Shown here piece after piece: positions 44,736-62,390 of a DNA stretch of 64,000 bases. This stretch comes from SAR116 cluster bacterium AG-426-B08 (GTDB taxonomy: Bacteria > Pseudomonadota > Alphaproteobacteria > Puniceispirillales > Marisalimonadaceae), in NCBI GenBank assembly GCA_003213175.1, contig QCNN01000005.1:1-64000 (forward strand), read 5' to 3'. The notes beneath the pieces were generated by a model that was given only the letters and a program-made list of their open reading frames with translations, was not told where the DNA came from and did not search any database. Within the stretch, counting starts at the first letter, position 1, and every line of letters starts with the position of its first letter. Both the position numbers and the translations under genes were made by a program.

Positions 44736-46068
44736 ATTTCAAACATAGAATTAATTTTAAAAGGGCCTATAACTTCCATGCTCTGGAAACTTGGTTTTCC
44801 AAATATAATTGCATGGCTCGCATGGACTATATCAACTTTTGCAGATGCGTTTTTTGTTGGTATTTTAGGAACTAATACTTTAGCTTCAATTGCTCTCATT
44901 TTTCCTTTTCAAATGTTAATGCTTATGATGGCTGGAGGGGCTATTGGAGGCGGCGTAACCTCATCTATTGGAAGAGCAATAGGTAACAAAGATGTTGTTA
45001 AAGCAGAGTCTTCTGCATGGTGTTCATTAATTATATGTTTAATAATGGCGTTGATTTATACAATCATCTTTATTTTTTTTTTCCAGAGATATTTTTTCTT
45101 TCATGGGAGGTTCAGGAGAAGCCTTAGAAGGTGCAATTAATTATGCAAAAATTTTCTTTGGTTTTTCAATATTTGTCTGGTTAGTAAATATTTTATCTGC
45201 AATTATTAGAGGATTGGGTGATACTTTAACTCCAGCAAAAGCAATTACTGTTGGAAGTTTGTTTCAAATATTGTTATCAGCTGTCCTGACTTTAGGTTTT
45301 TCTTTCATTCCATCTTTTGGTGTAATGGGGCCTGCGATTGCTCTTATTTTTTGTCATGCAGGAATGGTAGTATATTTATTATTTTATTTGTTTTTTGTTC
45401 AAAGAATAATAACAGTTAAAGTTAAACAAATTTCAATTGATATTTTCAAAGATATAATGAAAGTAGGTGGCCTAGGTCTATTAAACAGTATTACTATAGC
45501 TTTAACAGTTGCAGTTGTCACTGGCTATGTAGGTAATTATGGTGTAAAAGCTCTCGCTGGTTATGGGTTGGGGGCTAGACTGGAATTGATGTTGACGCCT
45601 ATTATTTTTGGTTTAGGCGCTGCATTGACTGCATCTGTTAGTATTAATATAGGATCAAATAAATTTAACAGGGCAAGAAAAATAGCTTGGACTGGAGGAT
45701 TAATTAGCTTCATTCTCATAGGTTTAATAGGTACTATATTTTCTATATTTCCTATGTTGTGGCTAGATAACTTTACTTCAGACGCTGATGTTTTATATTT
45801 TAGTATAAAGTATTTAAATATTGTTGCTCCATTTTATTGTCTCTTTGGATTAGGCCAAGCTCTTTATTTTGCAAGTCAAGGTACTGGAAAGATGATAAAA
45901 CCAATTATCGTAGGGTTGTTTAGGTTTTTTTCAGTTATTACAATTGGATACATTTCTTTGATTTTTAATATGACAATAGATTACATCTTTTTTGCTGTAA
46001 GTATTGGTTTGGTAATTACTGGAATTGGAATGAGTTTATGCTTAAAAGGCTCTGAGTGGAGAAAGTAA
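44736..46068 (+). pseudogene. MATE-family multidrug/sodium antiporter, frameshifted
   Basis: Twelve-helix efflux protein in two frames. The first part (to 45140) covers LILKGPITSMLWKLGFPNI and the GGGVTSSIGRAIGNKD block; the second part (from about 45090) starts RDIFSFMGGSGEALEGA and continues to the end. Removing one T from the T10 run at 45073-45082 restores one frame of about 444 residues. No normal start codon covers the N-terminus: the first standard ATG is 44778, 14 codons into the conserved region; ATG 44724 is in frame but followed by TAA at codon 3; ATT 44736 is the only plausible one. It may be dead or start non-canonically. Confidence 0.8.
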
Positions 46069-46077
46069 AATTTAAAA

Positions 46078-47121
46078 TTAAGACAATAATTTTAAAAAGA
46101 TAAGACTAGATAACCCCACTGAAATAGATGCAAAAAAACCAGCTAGCAATGGTTTAAAGCCTAACTTGAATATATTTTTTACATTTGTTTGCAAACCTAA
46201 AGCAGCCATTGCAAATAATATGAGGATTTTAGAGATAAGCTTAGTGTAAATAATAAGATGTTCCCAAAGAAAAATATTGGTTGTATCAGTAATAAACTCA
46301 TCACCTAGTGTTCTTATAATGGACAAAGTTATAAAACCAAAAACAAAAAAGGGGAAAAAATTTTTTATTGAATTCTGGAAATTAGAATGATTTTTTATGT
46401 TATAAATATAAGAAATTAAAGGTATTAAAATTAATAAATAGGAGTTTCTTAATAATTTTGTTGTCATTGCTGAATTTAATGCTATTTCGCTTTCATAGTT
46501 TTCATAATAAATTAGTGCTGCTGCGCTAACCTGAGCTGTGTCAGGAATAGATGTGCCCAAAAATATACCAGCAAACTCTTGATTGTTTGTAAAAAAATGA
46601 TTTGCCAAATATGGATAGAAAAGTACTGCAATCATACCAAACAAAGTAACTACACCAACCGCATAACCAGTTTCATCTTTTGATGATTTAATGATTGATG
46701 AAGTTGCTATTACAGCAGTAACTCCACAAATGCTTGAACCCATTGTTATTAAATAACCAAATTTTTTTGTGACGTTGAATACTTTACAAATGTAATAAAC
46801 AATTATAAAAACTATGATTATATTTATAGATATTAAAAAAATAGATTGATAACCATAATTAATTAGTTCATTTATACTTAATCCAATTCCTAAAAATGCA
46901 ATTCCTATCCTTAGTAATTTTTTAAGTGAAAGCTCAATAAACCATTGAAATTTATTTTCTATTTTAAAGAAATTTCCAACAAATAATCCAATTAGAATAG
47001 AGATAAAGGCAGATGAAATGATTATCTCTTGTAAAAGTAACATTTTGCTTACTATCATAGAAATAATTACGATGGTTGTAATAAGTAAAATTCCAGGAAG
47101 TTTAGATAATATTTTTTTCAT
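46078..47121 (-). CDS. YeiH/UPF0324-family membrane protein (putative sulfate exporter)
   Basis: A 347-residue inner-membrane protein with about ten hydrophobic segments. Family-like motifs are LRIGIAFLGIGLSI, MGSSICGVTAVIATSS and GTSIPDTAQVSAAALIY. The family is often annotated as a putative sulfate exporter, sometimes found near taurine or sulfonate catabolism; no direct evidence of substrate is visible here. It is convergent with the MATE gene with a 9-base gap. Confidence 0.85.
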   Translation of the reverse strand: MKKILSKLPGILLITTIVIISMIVSKMLLLQEIIISSAFISILIGLFVGNFFKIENKFQWFIELSLKKLLRIGIAFLGIGLSINELINYGYQSIFLISINIIIVFIIVYYICKVFNVTKKFGYLITMGSSICGVTAVIATSSIIKSSKDETGYAVGVVTLFGMIAVLFYPYLANHFFTNNQEFAGIFLGTSIPDTAQVSAAALIYYENYESEIALNSAMTTKLLRNSYLLILIPLISYIYNIKNHSNFQNSIKNFFPFFVFGFITLSIIRTLGDEFITDTTNIFLWEHLIIYTKLISKILILFAMAALGLQTNVKNIFKLGFKPLLAGFFASISVGLSSLIFLKLLS

Positions 47122-48255: not shown

Positions 48256-48870
48256 TTACTTCTTTCTTCTTTTCTCTATTTCAGCTTCTAAATCAGCCAT
48301 AGCTTTATCAGCATCTTTTTGGGTGCTTAAGATTTCATCTTGTTTTATTTGATTTAATAATTCTTGGTTCTTTTCACCAATAGGATACTCTAATAAGGTA
48401 AAATATCTGTATCTACCTTTTTCATTTATAACCTTTGATTCGGTGACCTTATAGCCAACCAAGGTAGTTTCAGGTATAAGATTTCTTGAAATTATTTCTA
48501 ATCTTTTCTTTACCTGTTCATTGTTTTGCGTTCCAGTTGTTTTTGTGTAATTGTCTATTTTAGACATAATTGTACTTTTAATAGAATCTACAAGAAGTGC
48601 TTTTCCATTCATTATCGATCTGGTTCTAGACAGATTTAAGTCAGAGGAAATACCTATTCCACATGAGTACCTTGCATCTTCATTTCCAGGTAACTTTTTG
48701 CACCAATTAGGCATTTCAGCAATGGTCTTATCAACATTATCATTTTGTACTTTAATAGCTTTTTCTTTTTGTTCTAACTTTGCTTCAGGAGAACCTGGCT
48801 TTGATGAACATGAAGATAATAACAAAATTGTTAAAACAGCACCTAAACTTAAAAAATTAATTTTTTTCAT
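48256..48870 (-). CDS. LPP20-like outer-membrane lipoprotein
   Basis: A lipoprotein of about 204 residues, start ATG at 48870, with signal peptide ending LLLSSC. It carries a conserved region typical of LPP20-like proteins: CKKLPGNEDARYSCGIGIS, then ALLVDSIKSTIMSKI, and YFTLLEYPIG. The C-terminus is a charged helix. It starts 3 bases after the upstream gene, within the same minus-strand set of envelope proteins. The function of the family is not well established. Confidence 0.75.
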   Translation of the reverse strand: MKKINFLSLGAVLTILLLSSCSSKPGSPEAKLEQKEKAIKVQNDNVDKTIAEMPNWCKKLPGNEDARYSCGIGISSDLNLSRTRSIMNGKALLVDSIKSTIMSKIDNYTKTTGTQNNEQVKKRLEIISRNLIPETTLVGYKVTESKVINEKGRYRYFTLLEYPIGEKNQELLNQIKQDEILSTQKDADKAMADLEAEIEKRRKK

Positions 48871-48872
48871 TT

Positions 48873-49656
48873 TTAATCCCTCACTATTGAATATCCTAAC
48901 CTTTGCATTTGCCATTGAGACCTACCTAGGTTTTGTAATCTTTTATATAATTCTATTATATTTTCTTCTTCCAGTATGTCTATTTTTACTTTGGATGCAA
49001 TAATAACTATAAATTCTTGAGTAATATTTTTATAAAAGTTATTTGGGAAATTCACTTTTAGCTTATAATCAGAGTTAGGAATAGAAAATTTATTTTTAGT
49101 AAAGTTATTCTTATCACTTTCATTTGGATAAAGCTTGTAATATACATTTTTTTTAATATCTGGATACCAGCCTAATACAGTTATAAAAGATTTTTTGTTA
49201 ACCTCTCCGCTTATTTGAATATTATCATTACTGTATAGAATTTTTTTGTTTTCTAATCTTACACTTAAGGCATAATTGCTATCTGCTTTTTGATTATATT
49301 GCTCTACATTTGCATTGATATTAATTACACACTCATCTTCTATAGAATCTTTATTAATAGTTTCTTTATAATTAAACTCCTTGATAAAACCTCCTTCTAC
49401 ATAATCAAATGTACTTTGATAAAATGTACAATCAGTTTTATCTTTGATTTCAGTACAAATATCTAATTGATCAGATTTAAACTTTTGAAAACCATTTTTT
49501 TGATAAAGCATTTCTTTTAGCAAGCATTAATGCTCTATCACATGCTTCTCCCTTGGATATATTCCTAGATATAAAATATCTACCTTCTGCTTTTGTCCAG
49601 TCTGCATAAACTTTAGTGGATATTAAAAATAAGAATATTAATTTATTGGCTAACAA
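48873..49656 (-). pseudogene. Exported FlgT/LPP20-like protein, broken by +1 frameshift
   Basis: The N-terminal frame holds a signal peptide (LIFLFLISTKVYA) followed by DWTKAEGRYFIS...ACDRALMLAKRNAL, resembling the FlgT N-terminal/LPP20-like module. The rest (starting near 49523) reads FQKFKSDQLDICTEI and beta-rich sequence, including a TVLGWYPD block. The frames join if one base is removed from the T7 run at 49495-49501. Start is uncertain: TTG 49656 gives a compact signal peptide and a 14-base overlap with the upstream gene; ATG 49728, 49704 and 49701 overlap far more. Full length is about 260 residues. Confidence 0.7.
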
Positions 49657-51206
49657 TAAAAACGACTGAAGGACGCATATATTTGTAAATTTCTGACGCA
49701 TCATATTTTTGAACTGAATTTGACTCATTATTTATTGGTTCATTTAAAAAATTTAAAAGAACATCTCCTGATATTGCTAAGTTTACATCTTGTACAAGAA
49801 TTCCTTTTTGTTTAAGTAAGAATTTTTTATCTAACTTTGCAAGTGACACACCAACAACAAGACCATTTTGATTAAAAACAGGTCCCCCGGAATTACCTAC
49901 ATTTAGAGTGGCGGTCATTTGGAATTCACCAGGCAACTCTCCAAAGCCAGAATTTTTACTTATTATGCCTTGTGTGATGGATGGATTATATCTGCCCAAA
50001 ATTGAAGATATAGGATATCCCATAATAAAAATTTTTTCACCAACCGTAGGTTTAGCTATTTCTTTTGTAGTCAAACTTTCATTTTTTGGAAAAGGGTTGC
50101 TTAAGACCAGTATTGCTAGATCTAAATTTTTATTTTTAGGATACCTAATTTTGTTAACTTTTCTTGTTTTTCCAAGTCCATTTCTTACAACAATGTTTTT
50201 AGATTTTTTAATTACATGTTTGTTTGTAACTATCCATTTGCCTTGATTAATAATAAATCCACTTCCTGTAAAAACTTCTTTATTGCTATCAATTATAATT
50301 TTTTCAGGTTCACTGTCAGGTTTTAAAACTTTTCTTTGAACTTTTTTAATTTTTGTTTTAGCAACATCTATTAAAACTTTGTTTTTATTTACTTTTTTCT
50401 TCACACTATCTACTTTTTTTTCTTCAATATTAAGTTTTTTGTCTGTATCTTTTGTTGCTAACCATGACAAAATTTGCTCAGATTTAAAAGAGTTTCCAGC
50501 TTCTTTAAACATTCTTGATGATTTTGTTCTTAGTTTGATAGCTTCGTCAATATTACCTTCAATCCAATTAATTTTTCCCAATAAATCAATAATCGAGGCG
50601 TTTGGTTTCTTATCAAACAAAGCATCAGTAATGATTTTTTTTTGCTTTAGATGGATTCCCATATCTTAATTTACTATTTGCATACACTCTAATGGCGTAA
50701 AGACTTTTGTTTGCTGTGTCGCGCATTAGAGCTTGTTTATAATACTTTTCTGCAACATCAGGTTGTCCATAATCGTCAAAAATTAATCCTAATGCAAGTT
50801 TGCCATCAACTGAGTCAGAATTTAGTTCTATTGCTTTTAAAGCATAATTATGAGCATCATTTAAATTACCCATTTTTATAGAGGATAATGCTAAGCCAGC
50901 GTATCCTTCATCTGAAAAATTAATAGAATTAAAAGTTGATTTTTCAAAATAATCAAATGCCTTGACTGGTTTTTCTAGAGCAAGATATATTTTACCCACT
51001 AACACTTGTGCATCAGCTGATAAATGTTTATTAGTATTTGATTTTATTTTAAGTTGTTTAAATGCTTCATCGACATTTTCTTCTTCAATAAGATCATTTA
51101 TAACTTTAAAATCATTTTTATTTATTCCATAAATAGGGTTATGTATGGTAAAAAATAACATTATAGTTAAAATTGTTGATATATATTTAAAGATAAACTT
51201 ATGCAT
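49643..51206 (-). pseudogene. Exported TPR-trypsin-like fusion protein, broken by +1 frameshift
   Basis: N-terminal half (from 51206): signal peptide, then tetratricopeptide repeats (for example AHNYALKAIELNSDSVDGKL and AEKYYKQALMRDTAN). C-terminal half (to 49643): a chymotrypsin-fold domain with triad in TNKHVIK, LDLAILVL and NVGNSGGPV, like HtrA without a PDZ domain. The frames join if one A is removed from the A9 run at 50635-50643, giving GNPSKAKKIITDALFDKKPN across the seam and about 520 residues. The start codon lies in a palindrome shared with the divergent lipoprotein gene. Confidence 0.85.
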
Positions 51207-52476
51207 TTTTTTATTAAAAATTTAATTTATTTAATATTACTTATTTTAATATCAAGTTGTCAAACACCTCGTTATCAAAAAGTATCAAAAGTTACAGATC
51301 CTTCAAAATTTTTACCTGAGGTTCAATATTCTCTGAGTGAAAATTTTAATAAAAAAGATATTAAGTGTATTTTGATTGGTAAAATCAATGATAAATCCAA
51401 AAAAACAAAGTTTAAAAATTTAAATAAAAAAAAGCTAATTAGACACGCAATCTACGGGCACTTATCACCAAAAAATTATAGAGATATAGAATTACATAGA
51501 ATTAATAGTTTTTTGATTAATAAAAAGTCATTTAAAAATATTTTAAATGAGCTTAATTGTGATGCAATCTTAGAAGGTGAGATAATAAGATTTGATAGTA
51601 ATTTTTTTCTAGCTTTTTCTTCTACAAATGTAGGTTTAAAACTCAGATTGAAGGATAAAGATGATAAAGTTTATTGGGAGGGAAGTCATATCGCATCTTC
51701 AAAAGCAGGCTCTTTCCCTCTTTCACCTATTGCAATAGCTTCAGGTTTATATTCTGCATCTATAAATAAGCGAGAAGAAACAGCTCTTCAAATGGTTGAT
51801 ACTGTTGTAAGAAGAATTATTAAAACATTACCTAATGTAACTAATCTTAATAACAACGAACAAATAATGTTTTCTACTTTTATTAATCATGAAAAACATA
51901 ACTTTGTAAATCCTAACTTTAATAAACCATTTCAATTATTTGCTAACGGTCAGTTTGATGAAGCTATAAATTTAATTGATCAATATCATGAAAAAAATAA
52001 ATTTGATGATAAACTTTTGTTTTTTAAAGGGTAGGTCATATTTACTACTGAATGAGAATGAAGCTGCATCTCAGACATTTTTAGATCTTTTGGCAATTAA
52101 AGAAAAAAGTGAGTACTTTAATGGTCTTGGTTATTCATACATGAAAATGAATAAGTCAAATAAAGCAATAGCAGCATATAATAAAGCTATTAACTTAGAT
52201 AATAAAAATAGCTTCGCATATTTTAATGCAGGTCTATTGTTTGAGAAGGGAAAACTTTATTCCGAAGCAATACGATATTACTATTCTGCAGGCACAAGTA
52301 GTATTTTAACAAAAGATTATCAAAGAGTTTTTAGCGTAAAAATTGCTTTAAAAAGATTAGCAAAATTTGATAAAAATGCTAATTCAAAAATTAAGAAAAT
52401 TGATGTGTTTCTGGATCAATTTTTGTTTAATGACGAAAAACAATATCAAATTAAAAAGGTTAGAGGTAATTATTAA
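51201..52476 (+). pseudogene. GNA1162/DUF799-like lipoprotein with TPRs, broken by +1 frameshift
   Basis: Lipoprotein signal (LILISSC) followed by a domain resembling GNA1162/DUF799 (CDAILEGEIIRFD, then VGLKLRLKDKDDKVYWEG), and a C-terminal part with TPR-like repeats (SNKAIAAYNKAINLDNKNSFAYFNAGLLFEKG). The first frame ends at TAG 52031-52033; removing one T from T6 at 52020-52025 fuses LLFLKGRSYLLLNENEAA and gives about 424 residues. Shares the ATGCAT start with the divergent TPR-trypsin gene. It is 6 bases from the MORN-caspase gene. Confidence 0.78.
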
Positions 52477-52482
52477 TTTGAT

Positions 52483-55038
52483 ATGAAGAATTATGTAATA
52501 ACATTTCTAAATTTATTTTTTTTTATTTTTATTTTTGGATGTGTTTCTTCTAATTCAGAAATAAAGAGTTTATCCTCTGCAACAAAAACTCTTACTTGTG
52601 AGTTTATTTCTTATGGTAGTGAAGAATGCAAAATTAGACGTAAAAGTGATAGTGAAATATGTGAAGACGTCAAATGTATAAAAAAGGGTGTTTGTGTTGG
52701 AAATCTGTTATCTTACCAAGATGAAATAACCTTAAGAAATATAAATTGTAATATTGAAAAAAAATATAAAAAAACTCAAATTAATTTATATTCAAAACAA
52801 AAAAACAATTTATATAACAAAAACCAAACTCATAATAAATCTTCTAAAAAAACTTATTGTAAAGGTCTAATTAAAACACTTTGGACCAATTGCTTTGCAA
52901 AGTATCAATATAAAAATGGTGATAAATACATTGGCGATTGGATGGAAGGAAAAATGCATGGCTTTGGTAGTTTAAATTTTAAAAATGGTGATAAATATAG
53001 AGGCTTTTATAAAAATAATAAAAGAGATGGAAAAGGTGTCTATAATTGGTCTAACGGAGATAGCTATGTTGGTTCCTGGAAAGAAGGTAAAGAGAGTGGA
53101 TTGGGAACATATACATGGTCTAATGGAAATAAATATGTAGGAAATCATAAAAATGGAAAAGAAGATGGTTATGGTGAATATATATATAAAAATGGTAAAA
53201 AGAAAAAAGGTTATTGGCAAGAAGGAAAATTTATCTCTAATTTAAGTTCGCAAGTTCAAAACAAAAATAATCACTCTCTTCGTGCTTTTGGCTCGGTTTT
53301 ATATTCAGACTTCAAGTTGTGTTCAAAAAAACAAATCAAATTAAAACATAATTGTTTTGGTAAAAAAATATTTAAGAATGGAATTTATACAGGTGAATTT
53401 AAAAACAATAAGTTAAATGGACTAGGTAAGTTTGAAACTTATAAAAAGGATGTATATCTCGGAGAATTTAAAAATAATAAATATTCAGGCAAAGGCAAGT
53501 ATTTTTATAACTCGGGACATAAGTTTAATGGTAACTACTTAAAAGGAAAAAGAGAAGGTTATGGCCATATAAAATATAAAGATGGAAGTGAGTATTTCGG
53601 AAATTATGTTAATGGAGAAAAAAGTGGATATGGAAAGTACTATTTTTCGAATGGGAATTCATATAAAGGGTATTTCAAAAATGGAAAATATAATGGCAAA
53701 GGAGCTTTTTACTTTGCTGATAATAGTAAATATATTGGTATGTTTAAAGATAATAAGTATCATGGTTTAGGAACTATGACACTAAAAAATGGTAAAAGTT
53801 TTAGCGGTAAATGGGCAAAAAATAAATTTTTAGGTTACACAGAACAAAAAACTTTTAAAAAAAATCAGCCTGAAATATCAGTTTCTGAATTAGAAAAGGA
53901 AAGAAAAAAAATAATATTTTTGGAAAATGAATTAGAGAGATTAAAAAAAGAAAAAAAACAAAGAGATAGAGAGCTTGAATTAGATAGAATAAAGCCATCT
54001 ATAATAATTAATTTTAAAAAGGTTACAGGTAAGCAAGGTATTTTAAAAGGAAAAATAATGGATAGTTCTGGTGTTGCAGAGCTATCTATAAATAACAAAA
54101 AAATTGATTTTAATGAAAATGGTGAATTTATTTTTTCTACATTCGTTCCTTTTGATGGCGTTGATATAAAAATTGAAGCAGTAGATATGGCAGGAATAAG
54201 TAATTCAAAAATAGTAAATTTTAAGAGAAAAATTAAAACAACAACTAATCAATTTTCATTTGAAAGATTAAATCCAATATCAAAAATGGTTAAAAAAAAT
54301 CCAAATGCAGTTGCAATAATTATTGGAATTCAGAACTATGAAAGTATAACCATTCCTGCTATTTATGCTGATAAAGATGCTTTAATGTTTAAAGATTATG
54401 CAACAGAAATTTTAGGTATTGAAGAGAAAAATATAAAATATTTCATTAATGAAAAAGCTGAATATGCAGAAATTTTATTATCGGTGAAGAGTTGGTTGCG
54501 AAGAGTTTCAAAACCTAATGAAACAGAACTTTATCTATTCTTTGCAGGTCATGGGTTGGCATCTGATAATGGGAAAAACCTATACTTACTTCCATACGAT
54601 GGAAGAAAAAGATTGCTTGAAAAAACTGCAATATTAAAAGAAGAGCTTTTTGAAGACATATTATTGTCAAAACCACGTTTTGTTAACGTTTTTTTAGATA
54701 CATGTTATAGTGGCACAACCAGAAGTTCAGAATCTTTGATTAATTCAAGACCAGTTTCAATTGTACCAAAGGTTCTAGACTTTCCAGATAATTTTACAAT
54801 TTTTGTCGCTTCTCAGGGTGATGAGACAAGTAAGCTATTAGAAGAGGCTCAGCATGGGATTTTTAGTTATTTTTTAATGAAGGGAATGGAAGGTTATGCA
54901 GACAAAAATGATGATAAAAAAATTACAGCTGGTGAATTGCATCAATACATTAAAAATAATGTAATACAACATTCCTCTGGGTCACAAAATCCTGAGTTTT
55001 TTGGAGATACAAGGAAAGTATTAATCAACTTTAATTAA
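52483..55038 (+). CDS. MORN-repeat lipoprotein with C-terminal caspase-like protease
   Basis: An 851-residue envelope protein. A probable lipoprotein signal ends at IFGC (about residue 20); a cysteine-rich region follows to about 130. Then roughly twelve MORN repeats (YxGxxxxGKxxGxG) in two blocks, about 146-258 and 297-448, a charged coiled coil (about 465-500), an Ig-like stretch (about 505-585) and a peptidase C14-type domain (about 600-851). The catalytic dyad is His690 in FAGHG and Cys741 in DTCYSG. Start ATG 52483 is 6 bases after the previous gene. This order, surface-anchored MORN plus caspase, is unusual; target is unknown. Confidence 0.9.
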   Translation: MKNYVITFLNLFFFIFIFGCVSSNSEIKSLSSATKTLTCEFISYGSEECKIRRKSDSEICEDVKCIKKGVCVGNLLSYQDEITLRNINCNIEKKYKKTQINLYSKQKNNLYNKNQTHNKSSKKTYCKGLIKTLWTNCFAKYQYKNGDKYIGDWMEGKMHGFGSLNFKNGDKYRGFYKNNKRDGKGVYNWSNGDSYVGSWKEGKESGLGTYTWSNGNKYVGNHKNGKEDGYGEYIYKNGKKKKGYWQEGKFISNLSSQVQNKNNHSLRAFGSVLYSDFKLCSKKQIKLKHNCFGKKIFKNGIYTGEFKNNKLNGLGKFETYKKDVYLGEFKNNKYSGKGKYFYNSGHKFNGNYLKGKREGYGHIKYKDGSEYFGNYVNGEKSGYGKYYFSNGNSYKGYFKNGKYNGKGAFYFADNSKYIGMFKDNKYHGLGTMTLKNGKSFSGKWAKNKFLGYTEQKTFKKNQPEISVSELEKERKKIIFLENELERLKKEKKQRDRELELDRIKPSIIINFKKVTGKQGILKGKIMDSSGVAELSINNKKIDFNENGEFIFSTFVPFDGVDIKIEAVDMAGISNSKIVNFKRKIKTTTNQFSFERLNPISKMVKKNPNAVAIIIGIQNYESITIPAIYADKDALMFKDYATEILGIEEKNIKYFINEKAEYAEILLSVKSWLRRVSKPNETELYLFFAGHGLASDNGKNLYLLPYDGRKRLLEKTAILKEELFEDILLSKPRFVNVFLDTCYSGTTRSSESLINSRPVSIVPKVLDFPDNFTIFVASQGDETSKLLEEAQHGIFSYFLMKGMEGYADKNDDKKITAGELHQYIKNNVIQHSSGSQNPEFFGDTRKVLINFN

Positions 55039-55930: not shown

Positions 55931-56626
55931 TTAATTATTCAAATCCCAATCAATAGTTTTGATATTAAACTTTTTTAAATACTCATTTGTAGTAGAAAAT
56001 GGTTTAGATCCAAAAAAACCATTTAATGCAGAGTAGGGAGAAGGATGAGGGCTTTTTATGATTAAGTTTTTTTTATTATCAATAAAATTAGCTTTTTCTT
56101 GGGCTTTTTTGCCCCAAAGTATATAAACTATATTTTTTTTAAAAGAATTTAAATTTATTAAGACTTTATCAGTAAAATTTTCCCAACCTTTGTTAGCATG
56201 TGAACCAGGTTTTCCTTTTTCAACAGTTAAGATAGAGTTTAATAAAAAAACACCCTGATTTGACCATTTCTCTAAATTACCAAAATTATTAATTTTTATT
56301 CCTAAGTCATTGTTTAATTCTTTAAAAATATTTTCTAATGAAGGAGGTTTTTTTGTACCTTTTTCAACTGAAAAGCTTAACCCATGTGCCTGACCAGGTC
56401 CATGATATGGATCTTGGCCTAGAATAACTACTTTTACATCTTTAAAATTCGTGAGTTTAAAAGCATTAAAAATTTTTTCACCAACTGGATAAATAATTTT
56501 TTGATTCAATTTTTCTTTCTTTAAAAACTTGCTCAGTTCTAACATGTAATCTTTTTCAAACTCATCAACTACTTTCCAATTTTCAAATATTTTTTTCCAA
56601 TATTCATTAAGATTATTATTTTTCAT
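55931..56626 (-). CDS. ung: Uracil-DNA glycosylase
   Basis: Removes uracil from DNA in base excision repair. Family 1 motifs are all there: the catalytic aspartate in GQDPYHGPGQAHGLSFSV, and the DNA-intercalation loop HPSPYSA (usual form HPSPLSA). At 231 residues it is normal length. Divergent from the enolase-superfamily gene with a 43-base gap. Confidence 0.96.
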   Translation of the reverse strand: MKNNNLNEYWKKIFENWKVVDEFEKDYMLELSKFLKKEKLNQKIIYPVGEKIFNAFKLTNFKDVKVVILGQDPYHGPGQAHGLSFSVEKGTKKPPSLENIFKELNNDLGIKINNFGNLEKWSNQGVFLLNSILTVEKGKPGSHANKGWENFTDKVLINLNSFKKNIVYILWGKKAQEKANFIDNKKNLIIKSPHPSPYSALNGFFGSKPFSTTNEYLKKFNIKTIDWDLNN

Positions 56627-57821: not shown

Positions 57822-59261
57822 ATGAACAAATCTTTTTATAGAAAAATTGGTTTTGGATTATCTGCAAATGATAATGTGCCTAAAGATGCTATTAAATGGG
57901 CAACTGACCAGATAAAAGCTATGCCAGAATCAACTTGGAATGGACCTAAATATTCCCTAAAAGAAATGATGAATTTTCATGGAAAGTATAATTATACAGA
58001 TAGAAGAGTTTTAAGAAAAAAACATAAAAACAGTAGACAAGATTATAAAGATGCTAAAAACAAGTTAAAATATACAACTGGTCATTATTATTTCGAGCCT
58101 CTATGGTTATATAAAAGACATCATGAAGCTTTAAATGGCTCCAGCCCTGTTTTTCATAGATTTCTTCATTTCTGGGGAAATCATTTTGCAATTCAAAAAA
58201 AAAATGCAATGTATGTTTATGATGTTGGTCCATATCATTTCGAAGTCATTGCACCTGCTATGCTTAAAAACATCGAAGACTTGGTCTATGATGTGACAAT
58301 ATCATGGGCTATGATTCACAATCTAGACAACTCAAAATCTATAGGGCCAAACTCCTTACGTGCATTAAAGATGTCTGAAAGGGGAAGATCTGCAAATTTA
58401 AATGAAAATCATGGAAGAGAGTTACTTGAATTACACACAGTTTCACCTAGAGCTGGTTACAATCAAAATGATGTCATTGACATGTCTAAAGTAATGTCAG
58501 GGTGGATGCATAAAAAACATAAATCTACCAAGAAAGAAGAAAATGTTCCAATTAGCTTTCAAGATGATTATCATGATAGTGGTCCCTTTGAAATTTTGGG
58601 TAAAAAATATAAAGAAAGTTTTGGAACTTCTTCCTCAAAAAGTATGCTTCGTAAAGTAATTAAAGATCTTGTAAGGCATCCCATATGTATAGACTTTGTT
58701 TCAAGAAAATTATGCAATCATTTTGTTACAGAAAACCCTTCCTCTGAAATAATTCATCCTGTTAAAGATGCTTGGATAAATTCTGATGGTGACTTAAAAA
58801 CTATCCACGAAGCAGTTATCAAACAAGCATTTAAATATTCTCATCTAAAAAAGTTTCAGACCCCTGAAACTTGGTTGCTTCAGTTTATTAGAATGTCTGC
58901 CTTAGATTATTTTCCAAAAAATTATAATTATGATTTTAAAAGTAAACCTTCACGTATAATTGGTAAACCAGTTAGATGGTTAAGAAATTTAGGACATAAT
59001 CCTTACAGGCCACTTCAACCAAATGGTTGGTCGGATTATGAGGCTGACTGGATGTCTCCAGAGTTTTTGTTTAGAAGAATAGGAATGATTAAAGTTCAAC
59101 AAGATAAGAAAAGATTAGATCATATTGATAAAAGTTATTTAAAAATGATTGTTAGCAAAAATTTTGATAATGAAAGCGATGTTTTAAAATATATCAATTC
59201 TGCAAAGAACTCTGAAAAGATTCTTGCATTATTTTCGAGTAAATGGATGTTAAAAACATGA
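57822..59261 (+). CDS. DUF1800-family protein
   Basis: A 479-residue protein with family landmarks: FHRFLHFWGNHFAI near residue 113, AMIHNLDNSKSIGPNS, NENHGRELLELHTV, and the late FVSRKLCNHFVTENP. DUF1800 proteins commonly pair with DUF1501 proteins, as here. No Tat or Sec signal peptide is visible (it starts MNKSFYRKIGFGL), so export would depend on the partner or not occur. Its stop TGA overlaps the next ATG. Confidence 0.88.
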   Translation: MNKSFYRKIGFGLSANDNVPKDAIKWATDQIKAMPESTWNGPKYSLKEMMNFHGKYNYTDRRVLRKKHKNSRQDYKDAKNKLKYTTGHYYFEPLWLYKRHHEALNGSSPVFHRFLHFWGNHFAIQKKNAMYVYDVGPYHFEVIAPAMLKNIEDLVYDVTISWAMIHNLDNSKSIGPNSLRALKMSERGRSANLNENHGRELLELHTVSPRAGYNQNDVIDMSKVMSGWMHKKHKSTKKEENVPISFQDDYHDSGPFEILGKKYKESFGTSSSKSMLRKVIKDLVRHPICIDFVSRKLCNHFVTENPSSEIIHPVKDAWINSDGDLKTIHEAVIKQAFKYSHLKKFQTPETWLLQFIRMSALDYFPKNYNYDFKSKPSRIIGKPVRWLRNLGHNPYRPLQPNGWSDYEADWMSPEFLFRRIGMIKVQQDKKRLDHIDKSYLKMIVSKNFDNESDVLKYINSAKNSEKILALFSSKWMLKT

Positions 59262-60403
59262 AAATTTCTAGAAGATATTTTACAGTTGGTTCAGCGAGTT
59301 TACTTCTTACTGCCACCTCTCCATATAAACTTTTGGCAAATAATTCACAAAAAAAGAAAAACTTAATAGTGATTATGTTGAGAGGCGCAATGGATGGTTT
59401 GTCTGCTGTACCATATATTCATGATAATACTCTTCAAAAAGTTAGGCCTGATATATTCGTAAATAATAATTTAAAACTCAATAGTGATTTTAGTTTACAT
59501 CCTAAATTGAATAATTTTCACAAGATTTGGACTGAAAATAAGGCTTCAATTGTTCATGCTACCAATATTCCATATAACGAAAGGTCACATTTTGATGGGC
59601 AGAATTTAATGGAAAGTGGGGGTACAGTCCCTTATAAACTAAAAACAGGATGGTTGGGAAGGGGTATTGATGTTGCAGGATTAGAAGGTTTATCTATATC
59701 ATTACCTATGCCTCTATTGTTAAGGGGTGAAATTAATCATGATAATTTTTATCCTTCAAACCTTCGTATGCCCAGTCAATCAATGATTAATTTAATGCAT
59801 TCGCATTATAATAGTGAAAAAATTATAAAAAAATCTTTTGAGAAGTTAACTTCCAGGCCTCTTTCAATGATGTCTGGAAGAAAAAATAAAAGATTAGCTA
59901 ATCTAGCTCGTATTGCAGGAAATGAGATGAAAAAAGACGATGGACCTAGGGTTGCGGTCTTTGAAGTATTTGGCTTTGATACACATGCAGCTCAAGGTGG
60001 AGCTGATGGCGAACATGGTCAAAAACTTAGGCAAGTTGACATAACTTTTGCTTCATTAAAAAATTCTCTTGGAAAAGCTTTTGATAATACTCTAATTTTA
60101 ACTTTAACTGAGTTTGGCAGATCTTTAGTACAAAATAATGGTTATGGCACTGAACATGGTTATGGAAGTGCAATTTTAATGGGTGGAGGCTTACTTAAAA
60201 AGTCTCAAGTTTATACTGATTGGCCAGGAATTAAGAAAACAAATTTATTTGAAGGAAGAGATTTAGACTCTACTATAGACTCAAGATCCGTTTATTGCAG
60301 CGCTATGTCAGTTTGCTTTGATGTACCATTTAAAAAAATTAATGATTTAGTATTTCCAGACAAAAAATTACCCAACTTAACTGATAAGTTATTTAACATA
60401 TAA
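59258..60403 (+). CDS. DUF1501-family protein with twin-arginine signal
   Basis: An approximately 381-residue protein of the alkaline-phosphatase-like DUF1501 family. The N-terminal KISRRYFTVGSASLLL is a Tat signal matching the TatABC genes at 3.8-5.2 kb. Later blocks are VIMLRGAMDGLSAVP, FDTHAAQGGADGEHGQ and LTLTEFGRSLVQN. The start is the ATG at 59258, which overlaps the DUF1800 stop by ATGA; an ATG at 59243 would add five residues. It works with its DUF1800 neighbour in an unknown envelope process. Confidence 0.88.
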   Translation: MKISRRYFTVGSASLLLTATSPYKLLANNSQKKKNLIVIMLRGAMDGLSAVPYIHDNTLQKVRPDIFVNNNLKLNSDFSLHPKLNNFHKIWTENKASIVHATNIPYNERSHFDGQNLMESGGTVPYKLKTGWLGRGIDVAGLEGLSISLPMPLLLRGEINHDNFYPSNLRMPSQSMINLMHSHYNSEKIIKKSFEKLTSRPLSMMSGRKNKRLANLARIAGNEMKKDDGPRVAVFEVFGFDTHAAQGGADGEHGQKLRQVDITFASLKNSLGKAFDNTLILTLTEFGRSLVQNNGYGTEHGYGSAILMGGGLLKKSQVYTDWPGIKKTNLFEGRDLDSTIDSRSVYCSAMSVCFDVPFKKINDLVFPDKKLPNLTDKLFNI

Positions 60404-61271: not shown

Positions 61272-62390
61272 ATGAGTAAATTTATATACTTTTTTTTCAT
61301 TATTCTCTTTATATATTCTTTTAATAATGTTTTTGCTAATGAATGTGAAAGCAAAAAAGAATATAAAAAATCAGAAGATTGTTATTGGTTAAAAAGAGTT
61401 GTCGGTATTAGAACACCTGTGATGATAGCAAGTGGCACGTTGATAGATAATAATTTTATAATAACCAATAGGCATGTTGCAGAGGATCATCCTCATGTTA
61501 TGGTAAGATTTTTTAATGGAGAGATTAGAAAAGCCTATCCTTTACCTAATAACTATCCTGTTGATTTAACTATACTTTCATTAAATAAAACTCTTATTCC
61601 TAAGAAAATAAATTTTCCAATTAGTTCTAAGCCTCCTTTAAAATTAAAAGTTGTTGGTTTTGATCAAGGTAGAAAAAAGAGCAGAATTTATAAACAAGGT
61701 AAAGTTATTCATTTTCCTGATTTAAATAAATTCCCATTTTCAAGAATTCACACCAATGCTCAAAGTTTGCCGGGAAATAGTGGGGGAGCAGTAATTGATG
61801 AAAGATTTGAAATTATTGGATTTCTTGCTTCAGGAGATGGAAATTATAATGAAGTTGTCCCCATACAAACTGTAACAAATGTTATTCAAAAAACAGATAT
61901 AAATGTCAAAGAGGAATTTATTTATTGGGGAAGAAATATTAGAATCTGCGCTGATACACTGGAATTTTCCTATAAGTTTCAAAAAAAACCACCACAAAAC
62001 CTAATCAAAAAAATTGAAAAATTTTGTTCTTTGTCTAAAAACAAGCAATTATTTGATCAAGTTGGCCAGACTTTCGGTCGTTGGGGCCTTTTTGACAAAT
62101 CAATTCTCTTTTTGAAAAAAAGTTTAAATTTGGATCCTTATAGTCCCAATACTCTTTTATCATTAGCTATTAGCTTTCATATTAAAAGGGATATAAAATC
62201 TGAGGAACCTATAATTGTCAAACTATTAAACCTCATTCCTGAAGATCCACAGGTTTTAAGATTAGGCATTCAAGTTGCGGGATATCTAAAAAATAAAAAA
62301 TTAGGTAAAAATGTTTTAAAACTTATGAAAACTCATAATCCAGCAGCCCATCCATTGGCAAAAAACTATCTAAAAAACGCATTTAAATAA
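61272..62390 (+). CDS. Exported trypsin-like serine protease with C-terminal TPR region
   Basis: A 372-residue periplasmic protein. Signal peptide about 1-22 (NNVFA end). The chymotrypsin-fold domain has a complete triad: His68 in TNRHVAE, Asp98 in YPVDLTIL, Ser170 in LPGNSGGAV. Residues about 265-370 are helical and TPR-like (KSLNLDPYSPNTLLSLAISF). The order, protease then TPR, is the reverse of the TPR-trypsin protein at 49.6-51.2 kb. No PDZ domain. It is convergent with the subtilase gene with a 4-base gap. Confidence 0.87.
   Translation: MSKFIYFFFIILFIYSFNNVFANECESKKEYKKSEDCYWLKRVVGIRTPVMIASGTLIDNNFIITNRHVAEDHPHVMVRFFNGEIRKAYPLPNNYPVDLTILSLNKTLIPKKINFPISSKPPLKLKVVGFDQGRKKSRIYKQGKVIHFPDLNKFPFSRIHTNAQSLPGNSGGAVIDERFEIIGFLASGDGNYNEVVPIQTVTNVIQKTDINVKEEFIYWGRNIRICADTLEFSYKFQKKPPQNLIKKIEKFCSLSKNKQLFDQVGQTFGRWGLFDKSILFLKKSLNLDPYSPNTLLSLAISFHIKRDIKSEEPIIVKLLNLIPEDPQVLRLGIQVAGYLKNKKLGKNVLKLMKTHNPAAHPLAKNYLKNAFK

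What the first reader, a model, noticed from the sequence alone, without database searches (positions are those of the whole stretch)
48256..55038. Divergent envelope cluster pairing TPR-trypsin, LPP20/FlgT-like and GNA1162-like proteins with a MORN-caspase lipoprotein
Five adjacent genes all carry signal peptides or lipoboxes. Two encode proteases of different families (chymotrypsin fold and caspase fold), and the rest are lipoprotein or FlgT/LPP20-like modules. The sets are divergent with tiny gaps (3 and 6 bases), implying joint control. I do not know this combination as a named system. It could be an outer-membrane-linked proteolytic or stress-sensing complex, with MORN and TPR parts as the scaffold.
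Basis: partly seen in the sequence, partly recalled or inferred. Interest (0 to 1): 0.75.

Follow-up and report, generated by a model that had tools for sequence, protein, structure and literature searches.

The report
Envelope caspase–trypsin module in SAR116 bacteria
Some uncultured marine SAR116 bacteria carry a conserved set of exported proteins built around two unrelated kinds of protein-cutting enzyme whose sensor ends are swapped and diversified, which looks like an undescribed surveillance or stress system at the cell envelope, although nobody has tested what it does.

Summary
The window is from a SAR116-type alphaproteobacterium. Five exported genes lie head to head: LPP20-like lipoprotein, DUF4384 protein and TPR-trypsin on the minus strand; GNA1162-TPR lipoprotein and MORN-caspase lipoprotein on the plus strand. 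Three of the five are split here by one-base shifts in T-runs; relatives have intact copies.

The neighbourhood is conserved. Of 136 order genomes, 25 hit the LPP20-like model; beside it DUF4384 is adjacent in 23, a caspase lies within 5.1 kb in 20, a trypsin in 16, GNA in 14. An alphaproteobacterium of another order holds all five on one strand, each over its Pfam cut-off. Trypsin, caspase and DUF4384 also occur as one protein, here and in a 2019 paper.

In two cases a homologous partner gene and N-terminus precede a caspase in one genome and a trypsin in another. I propose a lipoprotein-anchored envelope surveillance module with interchangeable protease effectors. Conservation and modularity are shown; signal, target and outcome are inferred. 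New variant of a known kind.

The parts
48256..48870 (-). LPP20-like lipoprotein, 204 aa (lipobox ...LSSC, Cys21); core component
   Evidence: ORF (ATG at 48870); LPP20 E=0.019, 15.8 bits, cut-off 25.9; 9 of 10 orthologues hit LPP20 at E<=0.05, best 2e-6; G194 orthologue 28.3 bits, over the cut-off
48873..49728 (-). Exported DUF4384 protein, core component; frame broken in the window (ORFs 49477-49728 and 48873-49523, shift near 49495)
   Evidence: DUF4384 E=0.006 in the window piece; orthologues over the cut-off in L036 (27.9 bits), G194 and G239; C-terminal Ig-like beta-sandwich in the model of the G002 orthologue, mean pLDDT 72
49643..51206 (-). Exported TPR-trypsin (chymotrypsin-fold) protease, core component; frame broken in the window (ORFs 50625-51206 and 49643-50662, shift near 50635)
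   Evidence: Trypsin_2 E=4e-23, TPR_2 E=8e-11; His, Asp, Ser of the triad invariant in 8 of 8 orthologues
51201..51206 (.). Overlapping divergent start codons (palindrome ATGCAT)
   Evidence: first ATGs overlap or are at most 3 bases apart in 7 of the 13 loci listed: window, L028, L029, L030, L031, L032, L089
51201..52476 (+). GNA1162-like lipoprotein with C-terminal TPRs, core component; frame broken in the window (ORFs 51201-52034 and 51976-52476, shift near 52020)
   Evidence: GNA1162-like E=0.005; 7 of 10 orthologues hit it at E<=0.05; G194 orthologue 29.6 bits, cut-off 25.9
52483..55038 (+). MORN-caspase lipoprotein, 851 aa: lipobox, MORN repeats, coiled coil (by eye), Ig-like domain, caspase p20; variable sensor-effector component
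   Evidence: ORF; MORN 8 stretches E=6e-36, Peptidase_C14 E=9e-14 at residues 610-844
52870..53870 (+). MORN-repeat region (approximate limits)
   Evidence: 8 stretches; repeats read by eye from the translation
53985..54240 (+). Ig-like domain in front of the caspase (approximate; assigned by homology)
   Evidence: Glucodextran_B hits at this place in relatives L032 and L037 (below the cut-off) and L093 (32.9 bits, over the cut-off of 27); not itself reported by Pfam in the window
54310..55014 (+). Caspase p20 domain with intact His (AGHG) and Cys (LDTCYSG)
   Evidence: motifs read

Best explanation
A modular, exported protease system. A constant core (LPP20-like lipoprotein, DUF4384 protein, TPR-chymotrypsin-fold protease, GNA1162-TPR lipoprotein) forms a lipoprotein-anchored scaffold in the periplasm or at the outer membrane. 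Onto it act effectors built as [signal peptide or lipobox]-[variable sensor]-[linker or Ig-like domain]-[protease], where the protease is a caspase or, in other genomes, a trypsin-like domain. A disturbance at the envelope is sensed by the variable N-terminus, the effector is activated by proximity on the scaffold, and it cuts periplasmic targets (possibly core proteins), giving an envelope stress or self-limiting response. SHOWN by sequence: conservation, linkage, export signals (by eye), intact catalytic residues, fast N-terminal divergence, protease exchange, patchy placement. INFERRED: complex formation, proximity activation, signal, targets, outcome.
For: Linkage: of 25 order genomes with an LPP20-like hit, 23, 20, 16 and 14 have DUF4384, caspase, trypsin (core or fused) and GNA beside it; 12 have all five. 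G194, of another alphaproteobacterial order, has all five on one strand, four of them overlapping by 4-8 bases. Genome co-occurrence: all 11 GNA-positive of 61 genomes (own included) hold the caspase, against 11 of 50 GNA-negative. Reduced operons keep DUF4384-LPP20-caspase (L155, L156, L158). Fusions: trypsin with a DUF4384-like part (L159); trypsin-caspase-DUF4384 in one 977-aa protein (L188), as published for rhizobial proteins (PMC6426788, section 13 read). Modularity: caspase domains 95-97% identical while the locally aligned parts of the N-termini are 46-65% identical (L103 pair, L105/L111, L032/L104). Protease exchange: 80% identical 82-aa N-terminal stretch before trypsin (L034) or caspase (L033), both next to the same kind of small lipoprotein; 71% identical putative barrel protein before trypsin (L033) or caspase (L111) with similar lipoprotein N-termini.
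Against: No experiment and no complex model; target and signal unknown. Misses: two LPP20-like hits in the order (G033, G057) have none of the partners nearby, and G026 has LPP20, DUF4384 and GNA but neither trypsin nor caspase in 16 kb (its caspase match is about 19 kb away). A K/R-rich linker before the core trypsin, which would suit cleavage by a caspase, is not general: 0.15 and 0.09 K+R in L090 and L091 (script stopped by an error part-way). The core protease lacks Asp at the specificity position, so it is probably not trypsin-like in preference (numbering recalled). PADLOC gave only generic protease and caspase models for the six proteins scanned. The system is rare outside the order: the LPP20-like model hits 5 of 385 class and 6 of 398 phylum genomes, own included in both, and five of those hits (G229, G825, G643, G771, G495) show none of the partners nearby. 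Three core genes are frame-shifted in the window itself.
Confidence: 0.45

Rival explanations
1. Constitutive envelope proteolysis or maturation: the core is a DegP-like quality-control or processing machine for lipoproteins or a CsgG/GNA1162-type export route, and the caspase is one more processing enzyme.
For: The G002 core trypsin's best NCBIfam match is the HtrA/DegP model (77 bits, far below the 416 cut-off). GNA1162-like and LPP20-like families are envelope lipoproteins (recalled). The LPP20-like gene is present once in 24 of the 25 order genomes that hit.
Against: No PDZ hit in the core protease; fast diversification of effector N-termini and exchange of the protease are not expected of housekeeping; patchy presence, 25 of 136 genomes, many of them incomplete.
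Confidence: 0.27
2. Accessory ring of a membrane motor, like the FlgO/FlgP/FlgT parts of polar flagella.
For: LPP20-like lipoprotein (FlgP carries this domain, recalled); one trypsin fusion in L159 carries a FliL domain, 46.9 bits over the 24.6 cut-off.
Against: No FlgT family listed for the DUF4384 proteins; I recognised no flagellar genes by eye in the loci mapped, but neighbours were not scanned with Pfam and flagellar genes elsewhere were not searched; flagellar rings are not known to carry caspases (recalled).
Confidence: 0.06
3. Proteolytic colonisation, competition or predation weapon: the effectors are surface-exposed lipoproteins that cut proteins of other cells rather than the cell's own.
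For: 14 of 36 caspases carry a simple lipobox pattern; variable N-termini could be target-binding parts; a putative outer-membrane barrel gene (by eye) precedes two effectors.
Against: No secretion or surface-export genes were recognised by eye in the cluster; a constant four-gene core with its own protease fits internal signalling better.
Confidence: 0.14
4. Hot-spot co-location without a functional link, or a decaying remnant in this organism.
For: Three frame-shifts in the core in the window; different chromosomal positions between genera.
Against: Same five genes in a different order in another alphaproteobacterial order; fusions of the same domains; near-zero start-codon spacing in 7 of 13 loci; adjacency far above chance (rough binomial).
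Confidence: 0.05

Closest known systems
Rhizobial trypsin-p20-DUF4384 pseudo-orthocaspases (Klemencic et al. 2019, PMC6426788, section 13 read)
   Same: Same three domains in Alphaproteobacteria; a 977-aa protein with these domains is L188
   Different: There one polypeptide with a Gln-Cys dyad; here separate exported genes with an intact His-Cys dyad plus LPP20-like and GNA1162-like lipoproteins, TPRs and variable sensors
NTP-dependent conflict systems with trypsin or caspase effectors (Kaur et al. 2020, PMC7159879, passages seen)
   Same: Effector slot filled by either a trypsin or a caspase domain, with varied partners
   Different: Those are built round NTPases or STAND proteins; none was found in the window's five gene products, and all five start with export signals
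Nuclease-protease pairs and canu caspase-nuclease loci (PMC12799240, outline with abstract and start of text seen) and gasdermin-protease pairs (PMC9612521, passages seen)
   Same: Trypsin-like or caspase-family proteases as activating partners in defence loci
   Different: No nuclease or gasdermin was identified in the window's cluster; predicted location is the envelope
Prokaryotic metacaspase operons (PMC3501461, sections 8 and 13 read, word search of the rest)
   Same: Caspases in operons with proteolysis and cell-surface functions; possible N-terminal signal peptides noted
   Different: Words beginning MORN, trypsin, SAR116 or periplasm do not occur in the main text; this gene set is not described in the sections read
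FlgO/FlgP/FlgT and LPP20 lipoprotein operons (recalled)
   Same: LPP20-type lipoprotein
   Different: No FlgT domain hit and no flagellar gene recognised beside it

Membership tests
Orthocaspase / Peptidase C14 (caspase gene) | Pfam C14 domain over the cut-off with His-Cys dyad | tested here: met
   52.1 bits, cut-off 21.4; GHG in 36 of 36 full caspase domains, D[TSA]C[YFH]SG in 33 and DACFTG in the other 3
Orthocaspase / Peptidase C14 (caspase gene) | Absence of a p10 domain (separates orthocaspase from metacaspase) | not tested
   no p10 model was run
Chymotrypsin-fold protease (TPR-trypsin) | Trypsin_2 over the cut-off with catalytic triad | tested here: met
   83.1 bits, cut-off 27.6; triad invariant in 8 of 8
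LPP20 lipoprotein family (PF02169) | Score over the Pfam cut-off of 25.9 bits | tested here: inconclusive
   Window 15.8 bits; G194 orthologue 28.3; 9 of 10 members match at E<=0.05
GNA1162-like (PF05643) | Score over the Pfam cut-off of 25.9 bits | tested here: inconclusive
   Window 16.9 bits; G194 orthologue 29.6; 7 of 10 members match at E<=0.05
DUF4384 (PF14326) | Score over the Pfam cut-off of 27 bits | tested here: inconclusive
   Window 17.0 bits on a broken frame; orthologues L036 27.9, G194 31.8, G239 42.9: met in these orthologues, not in the window copy
FlgT / flagellar H-ring | FlgT_N, FlgT_M or FlgT_C domain by Pfam | tested here: not met
   No FlgT family listed for the DUF4384 proteins; the fold of the N-terminal part was not resolved
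Trypsin-p20-DUF4384 pseudo-orthocaspase | All three domains in one protein with a Gln-Cys dyad | tested here: not met
   Separate genes and His-Cys in the window
NTP-dependent conflict systems | NTPase or STAND/MoxR component in the cluster | tested here: not met
   None in the window's eight ORF products; genes elsewhere in the genome not examined
Known anti-phage systems in PADLOC | Match to a named system, not only a generic protease model | tested here: not met
   Six proteins scanned (five of G002 and the L030 caspase): only RT-Protease_XI, PDC-M35A, PDC-S45 and caspase models, on the protease domains
Known anti-phage systems in PADLOC | Protection against phage in a living cell | not testable with these tools
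   needs an experiment
DegP/HtrA family | Trypsin-like domain followed by PDZ and score over the family cut-off | tested here: not met
   77 bits against a cut-off of 416; no PDZ hit in the core protease of the window or G194

The most novel reading that the evidence does not exclude
An ATP-independent, envelope-located immune network: lipoprotein receptors with exchangeable sensor ends feed either a caspase or a trypsin-like effector through one constant four-protein core, guarding the outer membrane against phage, predators or rival bacteria.
Probability: 0.22. Interest if true: 0.88.

Novelty: new variant of a known kind. Interest (0 to 1): 0.66.

Why it matters
To my knowledge the role of exported bacterial caspases is open; in one survey 70 of 217 metacaspase operons had no assignable function (PMC3501461, section 13). 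This module gives them candidate partners, shows that a caspase and a trypsin can fill the same place behind the same kind of sensor, and offers intact versions that can be expressed and tested. If the surveillance reading is right, proteolytic sensing with the logic of intracellular defence systems also exists outside the cytoplasm, without NTPases, in a marine lineage.

Tried and rejected
Flagellar-ring reading: no FlgT domain found. Known defence systems: PADLOC gave only generic protease models. Mutual processing through a basic linker: K+R is 0.18-0.35 in 11 of the 13 core trypsins listed but 0.15 and 0.09 in L090 and L091, so dropped as a general mechanism (the script stopped with an error after 13 proteins and the caspase half did not run). 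Trypsin-like cleavage preference of the core protease: position 189 is K, P or T in the 12 of 13 sequences in which it could be read, not D (numbering recalled).

Fold comparison of the DUF4384 protein: only common Ig-like sandwiches (best Z 8.0, 5gni_B, 93 residues, rmsd 3.1), Foldseek best E 4.9e-4 to GbpA; no LPP20, FlgT or GNA1162 structure is in the listed rows, which excludes nothing. Model of the GNA1162-TPR protein: only the TPR half is confident (mean pLDDT 53.6), not searched further. PDB sequence searches: LPP20-like profile no hit, DUF4384 profile five hits at E 0.09 or worse, caspase no hit.

Wider phylum: the LPP20-like model found 6 of 398 genomes including the window's own; in three of the others (G643, G771, G495) no caspase, trypsin, GNA or DUF4384 partner was seen nearby; the region of a fourth (G545, L124) was fetched but not mapped, and the fifth (G561) was not fetched. 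Class: 5 of 385 including the own genome; G229 and G825 show no partners. Whole-class DUF4384 survey: 15 of 190 genomes; of the 14 regions from 13 genomes that I fetched, my caspase model matches at or near the DUF4384 gene in L186, L188 and L195, and a caspase-like start is readable by eye in L185, so the link is general only in part. GNA matches in L095-L102 sit in other settings and were not counted. Promoter scan: fewer matches than in shuffles (34 against 43).

Choices behind the counts: for G006 I counted its second LPP20-like place (L155, contig C23); its higher-scoring match lies at the end of contig C18, where no partner was seen (L154). The LPP20-like profile A5 was built from 10 loci (9 in the order) that had been found through the GNA gene, and all 14 GNA-positive places were known through GNA before, so the GNA count is not independent; caspase positions were not used in choosing them. 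The match models were built from these loci. The 36 caspases are those of 37 with 200 bits or more whose domain is complete; some proteins start at a contig end. The statistics treat genomes as independent and ignore incompleteness and kinship. The literature statement rests; most subscription journals are not held.
Full report
What is in the window. Between 48256 and 55038 there are eight ORFs that make five genes. On the minus strand, outward from 51206: a TPR-trypsin gene (ORFs 50625-51206 and 49643-50662), a DUF4384 gene (49477-49728 and 48873-49523) and an LPP20-like lipoprotein (48256-48870). On the plus strand: a GNA1162-like lipoprotein with TPRs (51201-52034 and 51976-52476) and a MORN-caspase lipoprotein (52483-55038). 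Pfam gives Trypsin_2 4e-23, TPR_2 8e-11, MORN 6e-36 with 8 stretches, Peptidase_C14 9e-14; LPP20, GNA1162-like and DUF4384 only below their cut-offs. All five begin with a hydrophobic export signal and three have a lipobox, read by eye from the translations.

Broken frames. Aligned with relative G002 (95.1% identical over 16 kb), the only frame-breaking indels are three one-base insertions in T-runs near 49495, 50635 and 52020, one in each split gene. In G002 the three genes are single ORFs of 276, 519 and 424 aa. Assembly error, decay or switching cannot be told apart here. The window's assembly is 52% complete in 93 contigs.

Where it comes from. The contig of AG-426-I14 has the same length as contig C7 of G002, which is of the window's genus, so G002 is most likely that cell (inference).

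Conservation. The GNA1162-like protein occurs in 11 of 61 genomes, own included, the core TPR-trypsin at 240 bits or more in 9 of 61, all of which also hold GNA, and the caspase in 22 of 61. All 11 GNA-positive genomes hold the caspase, against 11 of 50 others (Fisher p=2e-6, genomes taken as independent). Gene maps of the relatives show the same block, LPP20-like - DUF4384 - TPR-trypsin, divergent from GNA1162-TPR, mostly with a caspase near it. In the order (136 genomes) the LPP20-like profile hits 25 genomes. At those places DUF4384 is adjacent in 23, a caspase is within 5.1 kb in 20, the core trypsin or a fused one in 16, and GNA in 14; 12 have all five (for G006 I counted its second place). 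Of the five without a caspase, three (G015, G074, G057) lie on contigs under 5.6 kb; G033 and G026 do not, and G026's caspase match is about 19 kb away. G033 and G057 lack all partners. With a generous four caspases per 2 Mb genome, 20 of 25 by chance is negligible.

Other orders. Of 385 class genomes, own included, 5 hit the LPP20-like profile. One, G194, in another alphaproteobacterial order, has caspase, TPR-trypsin, DUF4384, GNA1162-TPR and LPP20 in that order on one strand, the last four overlapping by 4-8 bases. There every protein passes its Pfam cut-off: C14 48.0, Trypsin_2 93.8, DUF4384 31.8, GNA1162-like 29.6, LPP20 28.3. Of 4 genomes of that order 1 has it. G239 has TPR-trypsin, DUF4384 and LPP20 with neither caspase nor GNA seen in the 12 kb mapped; G229 and G825 have no partners. 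Of 398 phylum genomes, own included, 6 hit; three of the others were mapped and lack the partners, one was fetched but not mapped and one was not fetched.

Reduced forms and fusions. Several genomes of the order carry DUF4384-LPP20-caspase without GNA or core trypsin in the region mapped: on one strand in L155, L156 and L158, convergent in L157. In L159 a trypsin is fused to a FliL domain and, by my own profile, a DUF4384-like end, beside an LPP20-like gene and a MORN-caspase (Pfam did not report DUF4384 or LPP20 there). In L188 (G217) trypsin, caspase and DUF4384 are one 977-aa protein, each over its cut-off except the second trypsin model. Klemencic et al. 2019 (PMC6426788, section 13 read) describe the same trypsin-p20-DUF4384 order for rhizobial proteins with a Gln-Cys dyad. 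So three parts of the module are linked independently by fusion.

Modular effectors. From the fetched loci I took 36 proteins with a complete caspase domain, of 37 at 200 bits or more. All keep the His and Cys: GHG in 36, D[TSA]C[YFH]SG in 33, and DACFTG in the other 3. The parts before the caspase domain, as found, range from 102 to 752 residues; Pfam finds MORN in 4 of the 12 caspase-bearing proteins scanned (13 stretches in L030), TPR in L093, and no sensor domain in several. Caspase domains can be nearly identical while N-termini are not: neighbours in L103, 95% against 47%; L105 and L111, 97% against 46%; L032 and L104, 95% against 65%; a second L103 pair, 90% with N-termini of 658 and 257 residues (N-terminal figures are local alignments). 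By contrast window and G002 differ little in both parts (96% and 87%), as orthologues.

Protease exchange. A trypsin effector in L034 and a caspase effector in L033 share an N-terminal stretch of 82 residues at 80% identity; each has a small lipoprotein gene beside it whose homologue also precedes caspase genes in the window's own genome (L038) and in G002 (L108). Second case: a putative barrel protein 71% identical over 206 residues precedes a trypsin lipoprotein in L033 and a caspase lipoprotein in L111, whose first 37 aligned residues are similar (43%, E=3e-7). In L034 a trypsin with Sel1, PDZ and MORN parts stands beside GNA, where other genomes have a caspase.

Placement. In G016, G007 and G010 the window's flanking genes (YeiH-type 46078-47121, uracil-DNA glycosylase 55931-56626, 57822-59261 and 59243-60403) lie together with one other gene and no cluster; G010 carries its cluster on another contig. 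The other 6 of the 9 regions fetched have the glycosylase in a different setting. The simplest reading is that the module sits at different chromosomal places in different genera.

Control. The first ATGs of the two divergent genes overlap in the window and G002 and are 3 bases apart or less in L029, L030, L031, L032 and L089: 7 of 13 loci. They are 25 bases apart in L036; in L033, L034 and L090-L092 the frames overlap, are wider apart or lack a clear ATG. If these starts are right, promoters lie inside the opposite gene. Consensus promoter matches are not above chance.

Mechanism proposed. Shown by sequence: export signals, constant core, linked effectors, intact catalytic residues, diversified and exchanged N-termini and proteases. 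Inferred: the lipoproteins and TPRs form a scaffold at the outer membrane; the effector N-terminus detects an envelope event; proximity activates the caspase or trypsin; a periplasmic target is cut, with a stress or self-limiting outcome. I put the surveillance reading at 0.45, constitutive processing at 0.27, an outward-acting protease at 0.14.

Relation to known systems. Trypsin and caspase filling one effector slot is known from intracellular conflict systems (PMC7159879, passages), and activating proteases of both kinds from defence loci (PMC12799240, outline with abstract and start of text; PMC9612521, passages). Those are built on other sensors; no NTPase was found among the window's proteins and PADLOC gives only generic matches. 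My text searches found no description of this gene set in the listings; searches for a periplasmic or lipoprotein caspase returned no paper. Structure work added little: the DUF4384 C-terminus models as an Ig-like sandwich, and only the TPR half of the GNA protein is confident.

Verdict. A real, conserved combination of known families, undescribed as far as I could search, with an unexpected modular effector design; function untested. New variant of a known kind, interest 0.66.

Noticed in passing
window 44778-46068: A MATE-type transporter gene (by eye) appears as two overlapping ORFs (44778-45140 and 45103-46068), another likely frame-shift in a T-rich stretch near the three in the cluster.
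   Followed up: no
window 61272-62390: A further exported trypsin-like protein of 372 aa (33.9 bits to my trypsin profile), conserved in G002.
   Followed up: partly
L038 7179-8405; L039 1-1674; L040 3-1352 and 9027-10697; L041 3502-4911 (other contigs of the window's genome): Dispersed sensor-proteases in the same genome: one caspase cut by the contig end and four trypsins with different N-termini (two start at a contig end), against one LPP20-like hit in this half-complete assembly.
   Followed up: partly
L095, L096, L098, L100: A GNA1162-like gene sits near genes whose products contain an ENLERERA-type stretch in other alphaproteobacteria, apparently a different conserved operon.
   Followed up: no
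L159 6009-8291: A FliL domain is fused to a trypsin with a DUF4384-like end.
   Followed up: partly
L036 6654-7457 and 15117-15974; L037 3421-4284; L090 5375-6091: Small exported proteins near caspase or MORN genes: the two in L036 share a 'KSDGSIIGSDGE' motif, the one in L037 clusters with them, and the one in L090 looks similar by eye.
   Followed up: no
L036 3-3576: Two related genes that look like class III nucleotide cyclases (by eye) next to the cluster, followed by an FG-GAP protein.
   Followed up: no
L195 (G288): Run of caspase-like genes (partly by eye) with two DUF4384 places in another alphaproteobacterium.
   Followed up: no
L103 7738-17867 (G053): Four caspase genes within about 10 kb, two pairs with nearly identical catalytic domains and different N-termini, suggesting gene conversion of the catalytic part.
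   Followed up: partly
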